36,117 bases of DNA from Sphaerochaetaceae bacterium. GTDB lineage: Bacteria; Spirochaetota; Spirochaetia; Sphaerochaetales; Sphaerochaetaceae. The notes under the pieces were generated by a model, which was not told where the DNA came from, searched no databases, and was given only the letters and a program-made list of their open reading frames with translations. Numbering within the stretch: position 1 is the first letter of the stretch; each line of letters starts with the position of its first letter. Shown here in pieces: positions 29,187-36,117 of this stretch. Where the stretch lies: contig JAIKXP010000028.1 in NCBI GenBank assembly GCA_024684115.1, positions 1-36,117 on the forward strand. The letters are read 5' to 3'. A program made the translations under genes and the position numbers.

Positions 29187-30473
29187 TTACTTTGACTTCT
29201 GAAGCTTTACCTCAACAGTTGAGTAAGTTGTTTTTGTAACATACTCATTACTGTCTTTCTCATATCCTGCAGGAACCTTGAGAATATGAACAGTATAAAG
29301 GGCCTCAGCAACATCAAAAGAAGCAACACCGTCGGCGTCAGTCTTACCGACAAGGCATGAGTTATCATCACAGAACTGAACGGTAACTCCCTTAACGGGA
29401 TTACCATCCTCATCCTTTACAACAACCCTGTAAGAAGTTTCAGAAGAAGTCTCTGCTGCTGCAGCAGTCTCCTGAACTTTTCCCTCAAGCAAGATGTCCA
29501 CTATATCTTCATAAACTGACATGAGGGATGGAGCTCCGACAACTGGAGCTGAAAGAATATAGCCCTCACTGTCTACAAAAATGCTTGTAGGATAGCCCTG
29601 AAGCTCCAGGCTCTCATTCATTCCCTCATAAGGCAGGATATTAAGATATTTTACTCCGTTCTTACTGAGCAGATTCAAACAGGCAGCAGAAGAATCTTCA
29701 AAATCAGTACAGATTCCAATAATTGATGCACCCTTCTTCTCAAGACTCTGATTAAGCTCTGCAAGTCCTGAGAGCTCTCTTACACACGGGCCGCACCAGG
29801 TTGCCCAGATGTTTATCATGGTAACCTTATTTTTACTGAAAAGCTCCTGACTTGTAACAGTGTTCCCGTTTATATCCTTTGTAGTAAATTCAACCTTCAT
29901 ACCGATCAGTCCGTCCCCGGCAGCACGGATCGGAGAGTAAGTTGCTTTCTGCAGCACTTTCAACAGTTCCTTGCCAAGATTGTTGAACTCATACTTATAT
30001 ATAAAAGACACTTCTGAAAGGTACTCGTTTACATCCGGAAAACAGGCATAGAAAGTTACATCTTCAACCCTGGCCAGCTGAATCATTTCATACTGTGTCT
30101 TAAGGGCCTGATAGTACGGAGAGGATTCTTTTCCATCCTGAACGGAAATAACCTGAGCAAGAACACCTCTCTTTTCAAGCAGATTTTCAAAAACCTCTAC
30201 ATTTCCGCTTTCAGCCTCATATACCATGTTCTGGAATTCACCCGGAGACATGGCAAAATAAAGGTAAGTCAAGGTTCCAGCATTAAGGTAGTCTTCATAC
30301 CCATTAGCACTGGCAACAAGAACTCCCTTCATGTTTTTACTATCAAAAGCTGATGTGTACTGAAGTTTAATACCGTTATTCCTGTACTCTACTACTCCTG
30401 AATCTGCATAAAGGGCAGAGACTGCAAGAAAGAAAACAAGAGCTAAAACAAATAAATTTCTTACCTTTTTCAT
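29187..30473 (-). CDS. Exported TlpA-type thioredoxin-like protein with C-terminal Ig-like domain
   Basis: This 428-residue protein starts with a signal peptide (MKKVRNLFVLALVFFLAV, probable cleavage after ALYA near residue 23). Residues about 25-185 are a domain I do not recognise. A TlpA/ResA-type thioredoxin fold (about 195-335) has NIWATWCGPCVRELSGL with Cys227 and Cys230, followed by GICTDFEDSSAACLNLL and the cis-Pro region GYPTSIFVDSEGY. A linker and a C-terminal Ig-like/carboxypeptidase-regulatory-like beta domain (about 345-428; VVKDEDGNPVKGVTVQF) follow. It should reduce or exchange disulfides outside the cytoplasm. The start overlaps the stop of the ferredoxin-TlpA fusion as ATGA, so electrons may flow between them (inference). 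Confidence 0.85.
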   Translation of the reverse strand: MKKVRNLFVLALVFFLAVSALYADSGVVEYRNNGIKLQYTSAFDSKNMKGVLVASANGYEDYLNAGTLTYLYFAMSPGEFQNMVYEAESGNVEVFENLLEKRGVLAQVISVQDGKESSPYYQALKTQYEMIQLARVEDVTFYACFPDVNEYLSEVSFIYKYEFNNLGKELLKVLQKATYSPIRAAGDGLIGMKVEFTTKDINGNTVTSQELFSKNKVTMINIWATWCGPCVRELSGLAELNQSLEKKGASIIGICTDFEDSSAACLNLLSKNGVKYLNILPYEGMNESLELQGYPTSIFVDSEGYILSAPVVGAPSLMSVYEDIVDILLEGKVQETAAAAETSSETSYRVVVKDEDGNPVKGVTVQFCDDNSCLVGKTDADGVASFDVAEALYTVHILKVPAGYEKDSNEYVTKTTYSTVEVKLQKSK

Positions 30474-31981
30474 ATACTGTTACCTTCTTTTATCTCTGAA
30501 GCCTGTTCATAAAGCGTTTGAAGCAGCTCTGGAGTAACCGAACCGCACTGGTTATAGATTACTTCCCCGTAGCGGTTGAGAACAACTGTCTGAGGAAGGG
30601 CTGAGAGCGCACCGAGCAGGTCCCAGAGCACTTCATCATCCGTCTCAACGGCAAAGCGCATTTTCCAGTTCTTTCCACGCTCCTGAACAAAATCTTCAGG
30701 GTCATCCGTAATTATATCTGAATGGAGCATGAGTATTTCTATCTCACCTTCATATTTATCATACAGTTCACTGAAATGAGGAATCTCATTTACGCACGGG
30801 CCACACCATGTTGCCCAGAGGTTTATGATTACAGGCTTTCCCCTGTTTTCAGAGAGCTTGAAAACGCTCCCGTCCATACATGTTATGCTGAAATCCGGAA
30901 GAAGACAGCCCGCCGTGTTACCGGCAGGGGCTGAGCTTTCATATACTGGCTCTTCTGCTGCCTGTACTGCCACCGGCTCTTCACTCTTGACTTCCTTAGC
31001 CCTGATTTCCGGATCAAGAACGTTAAACCACAGCAGAGCAAAACAGAGCACTGCAAGGGCTACTGCCCTTACGGCTGTGGCCTTTTTACTTCCACAGGTC
31101 TTCCCTTCACTTGAGACCAGGGTAAACCTTCCTGCCTTAAGGCTCAGAGCCTGCTCAGGGCAGGACTGAATGCACTTGCCGCAGTGAATACACTCATGGT
31201 CTCCTACATGTCGCACATCCATCTGACAGTTTCTGACACAGTTTCCGCACCCGTTACAGCGGGATGAATCAACCTTAACACCCACTACTGCTATCCTGCT
31301 GAAAAATCCGTATATGGCTCCAAGAGGACAGAGGAAACGGCAGAAACTTCTGTAACAGAAAATACAGAGAAGCAGAATCAGCACCATGATTACGAACTTG
31401 TTGGTAAAGATGCTGCCGAGCATGCTGAAGAAATCACCGTTTGCAGGATTTGCAAGAAGAGGAAGAGCTCCTCCAAAGGTTCCTGCAGGACATATGTACT
31501 TACAGAAAGCCGGGACAGCTACCCCGTGGGCTATTCCGTACCAGGCTGTTACGGCAAATACAAATACAAATAGAATTATATATTTAAGATATGAAAGAGC
31601 GCGTGTTATGCGGCTTTTCTTAATCTTGGGTGTAGGTATTTTATGAAGCAGTTCCTGAACAAGACCAAACGGACAGAGCCAACCGCAGATGGTGCGTCCA
31701 AGCATGAGTCCGTAGAGCATGAGTATACCGAAGACGTAGAAACCGGCCTGCTTTCCTGAAGCGGAGACTGCATTCTGTAAGGATCCGAGCGGACAGGCTC
31801 CCACGGCTCCCGGGCAGGAGTAACAGTTGAGCCCCGGCACACAGAGGGCCTTGGTTGTTATGTTTCTGCTCCTGTATATGTCTCCCTGTATAAAGCCCCT
31901 TAAGTGAGCATTGTATAGAAGTGCACAGTAGAGCTGTATGAGGCGTCTTTTTGATGGCAATAAACTTCTTTTCTTATCCAA
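30470..31981 (-). CDS. Fusion of a membrane polyferredoxin (NapH/YccM-like) and a TlpA-type thioredoxin domain
   Basis: This 503-residue protein has several transmembrane helices with conserved cysteine loops. These are LNCYSCPGAVGACPLGS near 55, GRTICGWLCPFGLVQELLH near 95, a Cys-Lys-Tyr-Ile-Cys-Pro motif near 160 and RSFCRFLCPLGAIYGFFSR near 215. Two [4Fe-4S] motifs follow, CNGCGNCVRNC and CIHCGKCIQSCP (about 240-280). After another membrane helix, a TlpA-like domain carries NLWATWCGPCVNEIPHFSEL, with Cys393 and Cys396. The layout suggests electrons passing from a cytosolic donor through Fe-S centres to an extracytoplasmic dithiol, as in CcdA-type systems but with Fe-S chemistry (inference). 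The start is TTG (31979-31981) with GGAG upstream, overlapping the previous gene by 8 bp. Confidence 0.85.
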   Translation of the reverse strand: MDKKRSLLPSKRRLIQLYCALLYNAHLRGFIQGDIYRSRNITTKALCVPGLNCYSCPGAVGACPLGSLQNAVSASGKQAGFYVFGILMLYGLMLGRTICGWLCPFGLVQELLHKIPTPKIKKSRITRALSYLKYIILFVFVFAVTAWYGIAHGVAVPAFCKYICPAGTFGGALPLLANPANGDFFSMLGSIFTNKFVIMVLILLLCIFCYRSFCRFLCPLGAIYGFFSRIAVVGVKVDSSRCNGCGNCVRNCQMDVRHVGDHECIHCGKCIQSCPEQALSLKAGRFTLVSSEGKTCGSKKATAVRAVALAVLCFALLWFNVLDPEIRAKEVKSEEPVAVQAAEEPVYESSAPAGNTAGCLLPDFSITCMDGSVFKLSENRGKPVIINLWATWCGPCVNEIPHFSELYDKYEGEIEILMLHSDIITDDPEDFVQERGKNWKMRFAVETDDEVLWDLLGALSALPQTVVLNRYGEVIYNQCGSVTPELLQTLYEQASEIKEGNSI

Positions 31982-32812: not shown

Positions 32813-32859
32813 TTCATGTTATGCAATATTATAGTAATAAGGGGAGGATTTACACCTAT

Positions 32860-33555
32860 ATGCCGATCGGCCTTATAACTGATATTGCAGCAATAACCCT
32901 TGGTGGTTTAACAGGTGGTCTTTTAGGCCGCCATCTTAAAGATAAATTCAAACAGGAAATGAACAGCATGGTCAGTATTATGGCCATGGGAATAGCCCTC
33001 TATATGATTCCTAAAATGGAGATTATGGGAGCTGTCATGCTGTCGGTAGTAGGATGTTACTGCTTAGGCAGTGCTATGGACATTGACGGTCACGTCAACA
33101 GGACCATACTCAAGCTCACAGGTAAGGTCTTCAGGGGAAACCAGAGTTTTGACGTGAGCACCCTTTCTGTTTTAATTGTCCTGATGGGCTTCGGAGGCGG
33201 AGGGATTATGGGCTCCATGACAGAATCCATGACAGGTGACTCCTCCCTTCTCATGGGAAGGGCTGTGTGCGACTTCATCAGCTCCCTCATGTTCGGTACT
33301 ACCCTGGGTCCTGTTGCTGCTCTTGCGGGAGGAACGAGTCTGATCAGCCTGTCCTTCTTCTACCTCTCGGCACGCCTTCTTCTGCCGTATATGAGTAATG
33401 TGGTATATGCAAATTTCATAGCAACAGGCGGCATGCTTACCCTTATCGGCTCACTTCGAATGTTCGGGCTGTCAAAGGCCAAACCCATGAATGCAGTTCT
33501 GAGCGTTATTTTTATTATTCCTGTTACAATACTGTGGCAGAAATTTATACCTTAA
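32860..33555 (+). CDS. DUF554 family membrane protein
   Basis: This 231-residue inner-membrane protein has about seven hydrophobic helices. Family features are the start MPIGLITDIAAITLGGLTGG, a Gly-rich central helix and the repeated acidic/Gly motifs around SMTGDSSLLMGRAVCDFISS and FGTTLGPVAALAGG. The YdfK/YqgA-like DUF554 family has no established function, though transport is often suspected. The ATG at 32860 is chosen over the in-frame ATG at 32821: a GGGGAGG site (32841-32847) lies 12 nt upstream of it and DUF554 proteins begin with this motif. It appears monocistronic. Confidence 0.82.
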   Translation: MPIGLITDIAAITLGGLTGGLLGRHLKDKFKQEMNSMVSIMAMGIALYMIPKMEIMGAVMLSVVGCYCLGSAMDIDGHVNRTILKLTGKVFRGNQSFDVSTLSVLIVLMGFGGGGIMGSMTESMTGDSSLLMGRAVCDFISSLMFGTTLGPVAALAGGTSLISLSFFYLSARLLLPYMSNVVYANFIATGGMLTLIGSLRMFGLSKAKPMNAVLSVIFIIPVTILWQKFIP

Positions 33556-33605
33556 AAAAATGTATTATGATACTATTTTCATATTCTTGAATTGAAGGGT
33601 TTCCG

Positions 33606-35735
33606 ATGGATATTTATGTTTTTGTATCAGTTGTCAGTCTTGTATTCATGATTGCAGGAGTGCTGTTCATTCTGTTCAGTATTGTTCTCCCCTATCTGAA
33701 AAAAGGTGAGAAATCAAAACAGAGGGAAGAGAGAATCCTTTTTCTGAGAAGTTTCAAGAAAGGCAAGATGGGTATTATCTGTATTCCTGCTTTTGCCCTC
33801 TACCTGATAGGTATTCTTTACTCCGGCAAAACCCTTACTGTTGCAATAGCAGAAACCATACCCCTTACCCTCAGACTTCTGACTCTGGGCTACAGGCTTG
33901 ATCCTGTCAGACAGCTGTCAGAGGCCTGTCCGATTTACCATTTTACCATGGTATTTGTCTGCTATATGTCTGTTGTCAACGCATCTCTGTTTGCCATCTC
34001 CCTGTTTGAACAGAGAATTTCTTTTCAGTTTTCTACAAGAAATAGAAAGACAAGCTGCTCAAAGATTATGGATACTGAAACATGCTGGATTTTCGGGAAC
34101 AATACTCAGAACAACATGCTTTACAACTCAGACCCTGAATACGGCTTCAAGAGAAGAATCATTATTGATAAGTTCCCGTACGGCGGAGATGAAAACCTCT
34201 TTCTGAAAGGTATTCATTATGGAGCTATGGGCACTCTTGAGGAGGAAGCAAACCTTCTTAAAGACTATCTTGAACACCTGAGTGATAATAAGCAGAAGAG
34301 CTTTACAATAGTCATTAACTGGGATAGTGATGATAGCAATATAGACCTTGCAAACACCTATTCAAAAGTAATCATGGATTACGCCAGTGGAAAAACAGCT
34401 GAAGAGATAAATTCCAGTCTGTCAAAGCTGTCCATCTTTATCTTTGGCAATGAGAAGTACTACTCCATCTACAATGAGATTGAAAAGAAATCTTTTGGCT
34501 GTTTTATCCACGTCAACAAGCATAGAATCATTTCCCAGAACTTCATCTGGAACCATCCTTTTACAGATGTACTGGCAAAAGACTGTATAGACTGCGACAA
34601 GGCTCTCCTCAGGGAAGATACCGGAATAAATGTTTTTATGATTGGTTTCGGAAAGACAAACAACAGGCTGTTTGCTGATCTGGTTTCCAGCAACCAGTTT
34701 ATAATTGAGGACAAAAAGGCTGAAAAAGGCTGCAGACCTTTTACTGCAAACTACTATCTCTACGATTCAAAAGAAAATATCTATTCAAAGGAACTCGATC
34801 ATAATTTCTTCAGATATCTGGATTTCTATAATAAACATAAAGATGACGGGAGATACCTGCCCATGGCAGATATTCCGGCAAATGTTTACCAGAAATTCAA
34901 TACTGATATAAACTCTCCTGACTTCTATAAATCATTGTCAACTGTTCTCGGCACAAAGAAAAAAGACCATAATATTTTCATTGTTGCGTTTGGAGATGAT
35001 CTCGAAAACATTGACTTTGCAAATAAGCTTTACTACAAGAAAGTTGAATGGAATATTCCATGCATGAAGATTTTTGTTAAGGTTTGCAGTTCAAAGTACA
35101 AGGACCAGTGCTGCAGTGAAGATATCTGTGTTTTCGGAGCTGACAGGGAAATATACTCCATGATGAACATACATGCTCAGGGACTGTTTAATTTAGCTTT
35201 GTATGCTGACATGGAGTTTGAGAGGCTTACGGCAGAAACAGACCCGGACGTTCCGAAAGTGGCTGACAGAAAGTGGTATACGTTCACCAGAAACAATATT
35301 GAAAGACAGAACAGTTACTACGCCGGAATTAACTACAAGCTCAAGCTTGGCCTTATGGGTCTTGAATTAGTTTCAGATGGCACAGATGGTATTATCTCTA
35401 ATGAGGAGTTTAAAGAGCATTATAATAAATGCAGGGACAGCCTTGCCATCCAGGAACACCTTAGGTGGAATGCCTTCATGATCTGTAACGGCTATGTTCC
35501 TTCAACAATTAAGGAGATTCTCAATCCAGAGAACAAGGGAATTGTTCATGAAGAGAAAAGACACGGCTACCTGACAAACCATGATGGTCTTGACCAGTAT
35601 GCTTCCCTTCTCTCTGAGAACTTCGGCAAGCCAAAAGAAGTCTATGACGTCAAGAAGTATGACACCATCATGATGGATAGGTGCTATGAAATCCTGCAGT
35701 CCCAGGGCGCCTCTATAAAAAGAAAGGATTCATAA
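33606..35735 (+). CDS. Membrane-anchored protein with TrkA-N/Rossmann-like motifs and RyR-like C-terminal domain
   Basis: This 709-residue protein is not in a named family I know. Three clear membrane helices (about 4-30, 55-72 and 109-131) plus a possible one at 77-96 anchor it, with a basic loop (KKGEKSKQREER) inside. The soluble part has several strand-then-glycine motifs of the kind that start nucleotide-binding folds: WIFGNNTQNN (Gly164), FIFGNEKYY (Gly281), FMIGFGKTNN (Gly347, Gly349), IVAFGDDLEN (Gly463) and CVFGADREIY (Gly511). The C-terminus (about 600-705) has SLAIQEHLRWNAFMICNGY (Glu617-His618, Arg620-Trp621) and later KRHGYLTNHDGLDQ, close to the RyR repeat pattern. A nucleotide or ADP-ribose-like sensor is an inference. 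AAGGG precedes the ATG. It stands alone. Confidence 0.6.
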   Translation: MDIYVFVSVVSLVFMIAGVLFILFSIVLPYLKKGEKSKQREERILFLRSFKKGKMGIICIPAFALYLIGILYSGKTLTVAIAETIPLTLRLLTLGYRLDPVRQLSEACPIYHFTMVFVCYMSVVNASLFAISLFEQRISFQFSTRNRKTSCSKIMDTETCWIFGNNTQNNMLYNSDPEYGFKRRIIIDKFPYGGDENLFLKGIHYGAMGTLEEEANLLKDYLEHLSDNKQKSFTIVINWDSDDSNIDLANTYSKVIMDYASGKTAEEINSSLSKLSIFIFGNEKYYSIYNEIEKKSFGCFIHVNKHRIISQNFIWNHPFTDVLAKDCIDCDKALLREDTGINVFMIGFGKTNNRLFADLVSSNQFIIEDKKAEKGCRPFTANYYLYDSKENIYSKELDHNFFRYLDFYNKHKDDGRYLPMADIPANVYQKFNTDINSPDFYKSLSTVLGTKKKDHNIFIVAFGDDLENIDFANKLYYKKVEWNIPCMKIFVKVCSSKYKDQCCSEDICVFGADREIYSMMNIHAQGLFNLALYADMEFERLTAETDPDVPKVADRKWYTFTRNNIERQNSYYAGINYKLKLGLMGLELVSDGTDGIISNEEFKEHYNKCRDSLAIQEHLRWNAFMICNGYVPSTIKEILNPENKGIVHEEKRHGYLTNHDGLDQYASLLSENFGKPKEVYDVKKYDTIMMDRCYEILQSQGASIKRKDS

Positions 35736-36019: not shown

Positions 36020-36115
36020 TTAGCCTTTAAATCCCCATTCTGCGCTTTTACTCTGCAGTTCAGCCATGTGTCTGAATCTGCTGTTTTCATTTTTCCTGAG
36101 CTCTTCAGGCCTTCC
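36020..36115 (-). CDS. C-terminal fragment of a probable ABC transporter ATP-binding/permease protein (partial, cut by window end)
   Basis: A leftward open frame enters from the window end and stops at TAA (36020-36022). It encodes 31 residues: GRPEELRKNENSRF, then RHMAELQSKSAEWGFKG. A Gly-x-x-Glu-Glu-Leu turn followed by an F-x-x-M-x-E-L-Q helix is the usual tail of exporter-type ABC ATPases (GTHEELL...F..M...Q), so that family is the best guess. Other frames across this stretch are interrupted or less protein-like. A hairpin terminator follows. Confidence 0.55.
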   Translation of the reverse strand, partial: GRPEELRKNENSRFRHMAELQSKSAEWGFKG

Positions 36116-36117
36116 CT

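What the first reader, a model, noticed from the sequence alone, without database searches (positions are those of the whole stretch)
33606..35735. Orphan membrane-anchored RyR-like protein with repeated nucleotide-binding-like motifs
The protein couples membrane helices to several strand-glycine motifs of TrkA-N/RCK flavour and a C-terminal EH-x-RW plus KRHG...L pattern like RyR repeats. RyR and TrkA-N domains co-occur in bacterial systems proposed to sense nucleotides or ADP-ribose derivatives in conflict and stress responses. Here they may form a stand-alone receptor. This is the best candidate in the window for an undescribed system.
Basis: partly seen in the sequence, partly recalled or inferred. 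Interest (0 to 1): 0.6.

Follow-up and report, generated by a model that had tools for sequence, protein, structure and literature searches.

The report
TIR-linked RyR-sensing channel-like membrane protein
This bacterial gene encodes a membrane protein built like a nucleotide-gated potassium channel, with a ryanodine-receptor-type pocket at its end; close relatives sit beside TIR immune-signal genes, so it is probably a previously undescribed switch that responds to ADP-ribose-like alarm molecules.

Summary
A confident AlphaFold2 model (pLDDT 88.8, pTM 0.83) shows three membrane helices with a pore-helix-like segment, two Rossmann/RCK-like lobes and a helical C-terminal domain. All six solved-structure matches at E<=0.001 are chains of GsuK, a NAD+/ADP-gated tandem-RCK K+ channel. 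The C-terminal domain is a divergent RyR domain, below Pfam's cut-off alone but tied to Pfam-level RyR domains by profile-profile comparison. The four ligand-contact residues reported for the cADPR-binding phage RyR protein RyDEP map, by my alignment, to H618, W621, H653 and D686, conserved in essentially all 45 relatives. The gene is accessory: absent from 3 congeners, lower in G+C, patchy elsewhere. In the same class, 4 of 5 relatives have a TIR gene within 5 kb (0.08 expected), three of them directly downstream. Most likely it is a RyR/RCK-gated, channel-like effector or sensor of TIR-made ADP-ribose signals. Open points: the canonical K+ filter is not met (TLGYR), no TIR_2 gene was found in this genome, the contig ends 382 bp downstream, and nothing is tested experimentally.

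The parts
33606..35735 (+). gene of the RCK-RyR membrane protein ('type A'), 709 aa
   Evidence: relatives
33594..33599 (+). GAAGGG, ribosome-binding-site-like, 6 nt before the ATG
   Evidence: read from the sequence
33609..33698 (+). TM helix 1 (residues 2-31)
   Evidence: AF2; hydropathy
33765..33821 (+). TM helix 2 (residues 54-72)
   Evidence: AF2; hydropathy
33834..33896 (+). pore-helix-like segment (77-92) followed by T93-L94-G95-Y96-R97 at the place of a K+ filter (TxGYG)
   Evidence: AF2; alignment; residues
33930..34052 (+). TM helix 3 running on into the cytoplasm (residues 109-149)
   Evidence: AF2
34080..34571 (+). first Rossmann/RCK-like domain (residues 159-322)
   Evidence: AF2; Foldseek GsuK; weak profile match to TrkA protein TM1088B (3l4b, E=0.62)
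34623..35174 (+). second Rossmann/RCK-like domain (residues 340-523): GFGKTN glycine loop and D387 at the end of a later strand
   Evidence: AF2; conserved columns; Foldseek
35400..35732 (+). RyR-like domain (residues about 599-709)
   Evidence: AF2; hhalign to type B RyR E=6.7e-12 and type C RyR E=4.2e-5; types B and C match Pfam/PDB RyR
35457..35468 (+). H618 ... W621, counterpart by alignment of RyDEP H75 ... W78
   Evidence: 45/45 relatives; RyDEP roles from PMC13232231
35562..35564 (+). H653, counterpart of RyDEP H100
   Evidence: 45/45 relatives
35661..35663 (+). D686, probable counterpart of RyDEP D117 (about 16 extra residues precede it)
   Evidence: 44/44 relatives with a residue there; the correspondence is by alignment and the least certain of the four
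32821..33555 (+). upstream neighbour, DUF554 family membrane protein, 50-nt gap; possibly co-transcribed but not part of the conserved context
   Evidence: Pfam PF04474 E=7.9e-31; its 82%-identical orthologue in a congener has no RCK-RyR gene beside it

Best explanation
The protein is a ligand-gated, channel-like membrane protein of a conflict (probably anti-phage) signalling module. Its C-terminal RyR domain binds an ADP-ribose-type nucleotide, most likely a cyclic ADP-ribose isomer made by a TIR enzyme. Binding is passed through a tandem-RCK gating assembly to the three-helix membrane module. The module then changes ion permeability and arrests or depolarises the cell. Shown here by computation: the domain order, the GsuK/Slo-like architecture, the RyR homology with conserved pocket residues, and the TIR linkage in relatives. 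Inferred: ligand identity, tetramer and pore formation, gating, and the effect on the cell.
For: AF2 model pLDDT 88.8, pTM 0.83; Foldseek against PDB: all 6 hits with E<=0.001 are GsuK chains (best 1.5e-4, prob 1.00), TrkH-TrkA ranks 12th. The partner family ('type B'), modelled separately, retrieves three entries titled potassium/ion channel, then GsuK, Slo2.2, MthK and Slo1. GsuK is activated by NAD+ and ADP (PMC3510474). Type B members carry a conserved pore-loop-like motif IGGLTFEG; two read FGTLGFGG and IGSVGFGG, close to the K+ filter TxGFG. RyR: type A versus B hhalign E=6.7e-12, B versus C 2.8e-10, A versus C 4.2e-5; type C passes Pfam RyR (5.8e-9) and a type B protein matches an animal RyR repeat construct (1.4e-6). 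The four RyDEP ligand-contact residues map to four (nearly) invariant residues. RyR domains of this Pfam family bind or cleave 2'/3'cADPR (PMC13232231). TIR within 5 kb of 4/5 family genes in the same class (0.08 expected, P about 1e-6) and 5/51 in a Bacillota order (0.98 expected, P about 0.003). One locus reads RyR-only - this gene - TIR, same strand. RyR matches occur in only 2 of 247 genomes of the phylum, both of which carry relatives of this gene.
Against: P0001 itself does not reach Pfam's RyR or TrkA_N thresholds. No TIR_2 match in its own assembly (93% complete), where the control genomes did ring, and no type B or C gene. The canonical K+ filter is not met in P0001 (TLGYR) and most type A relatives have VVLKY there. 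TM-scores to GsuK are low (0.28-0.30 by query), so relative domain placement is uncertain. Known PADLOC defence genes are not enriched next to family genes compared with genes further off. In the Bacillota order most copies have ordinary-looking neighbours and only 5 of 51 have a TIR within 5 kb.
Confidence: 0.55

Rival explanations
1. A housekeeping nucleotide- or NAD-responsive K+ (or cation) channel of the GsuK/Slo type, in which the RyR domain reads ordinary adenine nucleotides and there is no immune role.
For: Top fold match GsuK is an NAD+/ADP-gated channel with no immune role described in its abstract. Most Bacillota copies lack conflict neighbours, and PADLOC near/far shows no enrichment. 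Animal R12 domains bind ADP/AMP-PCP (abstract of PMC12627627). No TIR_2 gene in the window's genome.
Against: Accessory distribution: absent from 3 congeners, 1/139 genomes of the family with a full-length match, 6/393 of the phylum including itself. Strong TIR linkage in the same class. Clustering with RyR-only and RyR-SLOG-like proteins.
Confidence: 0.2
2. A membrane-anchored regulator that removes or buffers the signal (RyDEP-like glycosidase or sponge), keeping a TIR system off, with the channel-like part vestigial.
For: All four RyDEP residues, including the catalytic pair H75/D117, have counterparts (H618, D686); phage RyR proteins act as glycosidase or sponge; the K+ filter is degenerate.
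Against: A channel-like three-helix plus tandem-RCK body kept over most of 45 relatives is unneeded for a sponge. The other tested RyDEP homologues did not cleave and six of eight bound, so conserved residues argue for binding rather than catalysis.
Confidence: 0.12
3. A non-conducting regulatory subunit: type A proteins have lost the filter and work only with a type B channel or as a membrane-tethered sensor for another effector; the window's orphan copy may be idle.
For: Type A and B genes are adjacent in 7 loci; in five of them (L001, L069, L076, L078, L079) the A protein has no predicted N-terminal TM helices while B keeps them. Type A 'VVLKY' versus type B 'GGLTFEG'. No type B gene found in this genome.
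Against: Most full-length type A proteins stand without a B gene beside them and keep the N-terminal TM helices and the pore-helix-like segment. P0001 keeps T-L-G-Y of a TxGYG filter.
Confidence: 0.13

Closest known systems
GsuK, tandem-RCK NAD+/ADP-gated K+ channel (PDB 4gx0/4gx2/4gx5)
   Same: Order TM - pore helix - TM - RCK1 - RCK2; all top fold hits; Rossmann glycine loop in RCK2 (GFGKTN)
   Different: P0001 has one extra N-terminal TM helix and a C-terminal RyR domain, and lacks an intact TxGYG filter; sequence identity about 10%
Slo (BK) channels, MthK
   Same: Tandem-RCK gating-ring channels found as top hits of the partner type B model
   Different: No voltage sensor seen; RyR domain added; type B filter reads IGGLTFEG
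RyDEP and other phage RyR (PF02026) proteins (PMC13232231)
   Same: RyR domain; the ligand-contact residues H75, W78, H100, D117 have conserved counterparts H618, W621, H653, D686
   Different: RyDEP is a small phage counter-defence protein; here the domain is fused to a host-encoded channel-like body
Thoeris (TIR signal enzyme plus ADPR-nucleotide-activated effector)
   Same: In relatives, a TIR gene directly beside a protein with a predicted ADPR-nucleotide pocket
   Different: Described ThsA effectors use SIR2-SLOG or a macro domain (abstract of PMC11204291); a RyR/RCK channel-like effector was not found in the papers searched
Animal ryanodine receptors
   Same: RyR repeat (R12-type) domain on a cation-channel-like protein
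   Different: RyR repeats inside 5000-residue Ca2+ channels without RCK domains; the similarity of plan is modular, not orthology

Membership tests
RyR domain (Pfam PF02026) | Score over Pfam's gathering cut-off | tested here: not met
   P0001 no hit; own-genome PF02026 search empty; type B 26.0 bits against 27.4 and type C 36.5 bits
RyR domain (Pfam PF02026) | Profile-level homology to accepted RyR domains | tested here: met
   hhalign A-B E=6.7e-12, B-C 2.8e-10, A-C 4.2e-5; these E-values are for single pairwise comparisons
RyR domain (Pfam PF02026) | Ligand residues equivalent to RyDEP H75, W78, H100, D117 | tested here: met
   H618, W621, H653 in 45/45 and D686 in 44/44; the equivalence of D686 rests on alignment across an insertion
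RyR domain (Pfam PF02026) | Binds adenine or ADPR-type nucleotide | not testable with these tools
   needs a binding assay
Tandem-RCK ligand-gated K+ channels (GsuK/MthK/Slo) | TM-P-TM followed by two RCK (Rossmann) domains | tested here: met
Tandem-RCK ligand-gated K+ channels (GsuK/MthK/Slo) | K+ selectivity filter TxG[YF]G | tested here: not met
   T93-L-G-Y-R97 in P0001; VVLKY in most relatives
Tandem-RCK ligand-gated K+ channels (GsuK/MthK/Slo) | GxGxxG nucleotide loop in RCK | tested here: inconclusive
   RCK2 GFGKTN (third G replaced by N) with conserved D387; RCK1 only GNNTQN
Tandem-RCK ligand-gated K+ channels (GsuK/MthK/Slo) | Conducts ions as a tetramer | not testable with these tools
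   needs flux or patch-clamp work
Thoeris | TIR-domain signal enzyme encoded next to the effector | tested here: inconclusive
   Met in relatives; none found in the window's assembly, whose contig ends 382 bp downstream
Thoeris | ThsA-type effector (SIR2-SLOG or macro domain) | tested here: not met
   No such domain in P0001

The most novel reading that the evidence does not exclude
A family of bacterial immune channels in which a RyR domain reads TIR-made cyclic ADP-ribose isomers and opens a Slo/GsuK-like tandem-RCK pore: a channel-type Thoeris-like effector, and a bacterial parallel to cADPR control of animal ryanodine receptors.
Probability: 0.38. Interest if true: 0.87.

Novelty: new variant of a known kind. 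Interest (0 to 1): 0.68.

Why it matters
TIR-made cyclic ADP-ribose signals are immune messengers in bacteria and plants, and in animals cADPR has been implicated in ryanodine-receptor control without a settled mechanism. A bacterial protein that joins a RyR pocket to a tandem-RCK channel-like body, encoded in relatives beside TIR genes, would offer a small system in which RyR-domain sensing of cADPR isomers and its coupling to a membrane pore can be tested directly. It would also add a membrane-permeability output to TIR signalling.

Tried and rejected
Pfam, NCBIfam, PADLOC and PDB sequence searches with the single protein: no significant hit; the best weak ones (PCIF1_WW, CyanoTRADDas_TM, blaHMB) were judged chance. 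Plasmid and phage collections and viral contigs: no relatives. G111 match in the same family (E=7e-4, interrupted frame): not a full-length match and not pursued. Viral structure library: no credible match. Looking for an empty site in a congener: the DUF554 orthologue is there but nothing else is syntenic, so no clean empty site. PADLOC near-versus-far test: no enrichment of known defence models near family genes. Idea of an operon with DUF554: not conserved. Large-serine-recombinase fusion as the general architecture: confined to three genomes. One reference with a wrong frame failed.

Full report
OBSERVATION. The ORF 33606-35735 (+) codes for 709 aa, starts with ATG and has GAAGGG six bases upstream. 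The window is the whole of contig C7, which ends 382 bp past the stop codon, so the downstream neighbour is mostly lost. Upstream on the same strand lies a DUF554 gene. G+C of the gene is 39.7% against 44.9% for the window up to 33555.

DISTRIBUTION. Within its family (139 genomes) the only full-length match is in the window's own genome; the three other held genomes of the genus lack it. In 393 genomes of the phylum five others carry a relative. The one named relative found in genome contigs is from an 'uncultured Firmicutes' assembly. In the order of that genome 68 of 297 genomes have a match to a three-sequence profile. I examined 61 fetched neighbourhoods plus the window and found 45 type A proteins, like the window's, and a partner family, type B, of which 24 sequences longer than 600 aa were used (mostly 770-1320 aa).

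ARCHITECTURE. An AlphaFold2 model of the window's protein from a 26-sequence alignment has mean pLDDT 88.8 and pTM 0.83. It shows helix 2-31, helix 54-72, a short helix 77-92, a long helix 109-149, two alpha/beta (Rossmann) domains at about 159-322 and 340-523, and a helical C-terminal part. Against the PDB, all six matches with E<=0.001 are chains of GsuK, a tandem-RCK K+ channel activated by ADP and NAD+; TrkH-TrkA ranks 12th. TM-scores are modest (0.28-0.30 by query), as expected for a multidomain protein whose domains sit differently, so I take the match as evidence for the order and kind of domains and not for their exact placement. A type B protein modelled from its own 23-sequence alignment (pLDDT 84.6, pTM 0.85) retrieves three entries titled potassium or ion channel, then GsuK, Slo2.2, MthK and Slo1. 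Two independent models of the two branches thus point to the tandem-RCK channel class.

PORE. Between TM2 and TM3, at the place of a channel pore loop, type B proteins conserve aIYxxIGGLtFEGL; two members read FGTLGFGG and IGSVGFGG, which resemble the K+ filter TxGFG. The window's protein has T93-L-G-Y-R97, four of five filter letters; most type A relatives have VVLKY. So a channel-derived membrane module is likely, but the canonical K+ filter is not met, and ion selectivity, or conduction at all, is open.

RYR DOMAIN. The window's protein alone does not reach Pfam's RyR model. Type B proteins do marginally (best 1.1e-5 and 26.0 bits against a cut-off of 27.4), and one matches an animal RyR repeat construct at 1.4e-6. 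A third family, type C, has an RyR domain over Pfam's cut-off (5.8e-9, 7.7e-8). By eye it also has an HD-phosphohydrolase-like N-terminus and a SLOG-like C-terminus, which Pfam did not report. Profile-profile comparison links A to B (E=6.7e-12), B to C (2.8e-10) and A to C (4.2e-5). Eight of the ten invariant columns of the 26-sequence alignment lie in this domain. A 2026 preprint on phage RyDEP (PMC13232231) names H75, W78, H100 and D117 as contacts of a cyclic-ADP-ribose-derived ligand, with H75 and D117 as the catalytic pair. By alignment these correspond to H618, W621, H653 and D686 here, present in 45/45, 45/45, 45/45 and 44/44 relatives. The D686 correspondence crosses an insertion of about 16 residues and is the least certain. 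In that study six of eight homologues bound 2'/3'cADPR but only the founding protein cleaved it, so conserved residues argue for binding rather than for catalysis.

NEIGHBOURS. In the window's class, five relatives have readable surroundings. G659: a stand-alone RyR protein, the type A gene, then a TIR protein 30 bp on, all on one strand. G787: trypsin-like protein, type A, two TIR proteins, then a WD40-caspase protein. G593: type A, a 2045-aa protein with a TIR_2 match, then a TIR-NPHP3 protein. G746 copy 1: TIR_2 matches 2-6 kb away. G746 copy 2: a DUF4062-NACHT-TPR protein that also carries SecA domains, then an NPHP3-N/TPR protein. Four of these five genes have a TIR within 5 kb where 0.08 is expected by a Poisson estimate (P about 1e-6), and three have it within 1 kb. 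The five come from only two families, so they are not fully independent. In the Bacillota order the figure is 5 of 51 against 0.98 expected (P about 0.003). Other links: type C directly beside type A in L044, L053 and L066 and within about 5.5 kb in L059; a DUF4231 protein next in L066; a RyR-only gene beside type B in L082; a DUF4011-helicase beside the family gene in L064 and L078. RyR matches occur in only 2 of 247 genomes of the phylum, and both genomes carry a relative of this gene.

COUNTER-EVIDENCE. A blind test with PADLOC models on 102 near and 100 far genes gave no enrichment near family genes (47 versus 60 families matched). The window's own assembly (93% complete) has no TIR_2 match although control genomes rang, and no type B or type C gene. 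The copy here may therefore be an orphan, may depend on an unrecognised signal enzyme, or its partner may lie in the missing 7% or past the contig end.

MECHANISM. The best-supported reading is a nucleotide-gated, channel-like membrane protein: the RyR domain takes up an ADP-ribose-type signal, the RCK pair couples binding to the TM module, and the outcome is a change of ion permeability that stops growth or phage production. Domain anatomy, RyR homology and TIR linkage in relatives are shown by computation. Ligand, oligomer, gating and phenotype are inferred. Confidence in the RyR assignment about 0.93, tandem RCK about 0.9, channel-derived pore module about 0.65, conflict signalling about 0.65, whole chain 0.55.

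TWO FORMS. In five of seven loci with adjacent A and B genes the A protein has no predicted N-terminal TM helices and B keeps them. This suggests that A can serve as a soluble regulatory subunit of B, and that a lone full-length A, as here, combines both roles.

NOVELTY. The parts are known (RyR nucleotide-binding domain, tandem-RCK channel, TIR signalling). Ten full-text searches of the held open-access library did not turn up the combination, but the library is incomplete and a 2015 survey of nucleotide-centred conflict systems, which I recall as relevant, was not held. I therefore call it a new variant of a known kind.

Noticed in passing
L056:7059-10319, L057:8653-11913, L062:7158-10418: In three genomes of the Bacillota order the type A protein is fused in frame behind a large serine recombinase (Resolvase, Recombinase, Zn ribbon, found by Pfam in L056; 1087 aa) and has a shortened TM part: a mobile-element protein joined to a sensor/channel protein.
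   Followed up: partly
L072:10802-17092: A 2097-aa protein directly downstream of a type A gene combines DUF4062, NACHT, TPR repeats and SecA motor domains (SecA_DEAD E=4e-100), an odd mixture of STAND and SecA parts.
   Followed up: no
L044:6242-8494, L053:9575-11836, L066:11256-13523, L059:1741-4104: About 750-aa proteins with an HD-like N-terminus, a Pfam-level RyR domain and a SLOG-like C-terminus lie beside type A genes; HD and SLOG readings are by eye, since Pfam reported only RyR.
   Followed up: partly
L064:8862-18725: A type A gene lies beside a DUF4011-helicase (MTES_1575), a protein kinase and a PP2C phosphatase: possibly another composite conflict island.
   Followed up: no
L063:8363-11458: A 1032-aa type A protein with about 280 extra N-terminal residues of unknown nature.
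   Followed up: no
window 36022-36117 (-): A minus-strand frame reading about 30 residues to a stop codon runs off the contig end, convergent with the RCK-RyR gene; its identity is lost with the assembly break.
   Followed up: no
window 29187-31981 (-): A thioredoxin-like (TlpA-type) protein next to a NapH/YccM-like 4Fe-4S membrane protein that carries its own thioredoxin-like tail; read by eye from the translations, ordinary-looking redox pair.
   Followed up: no
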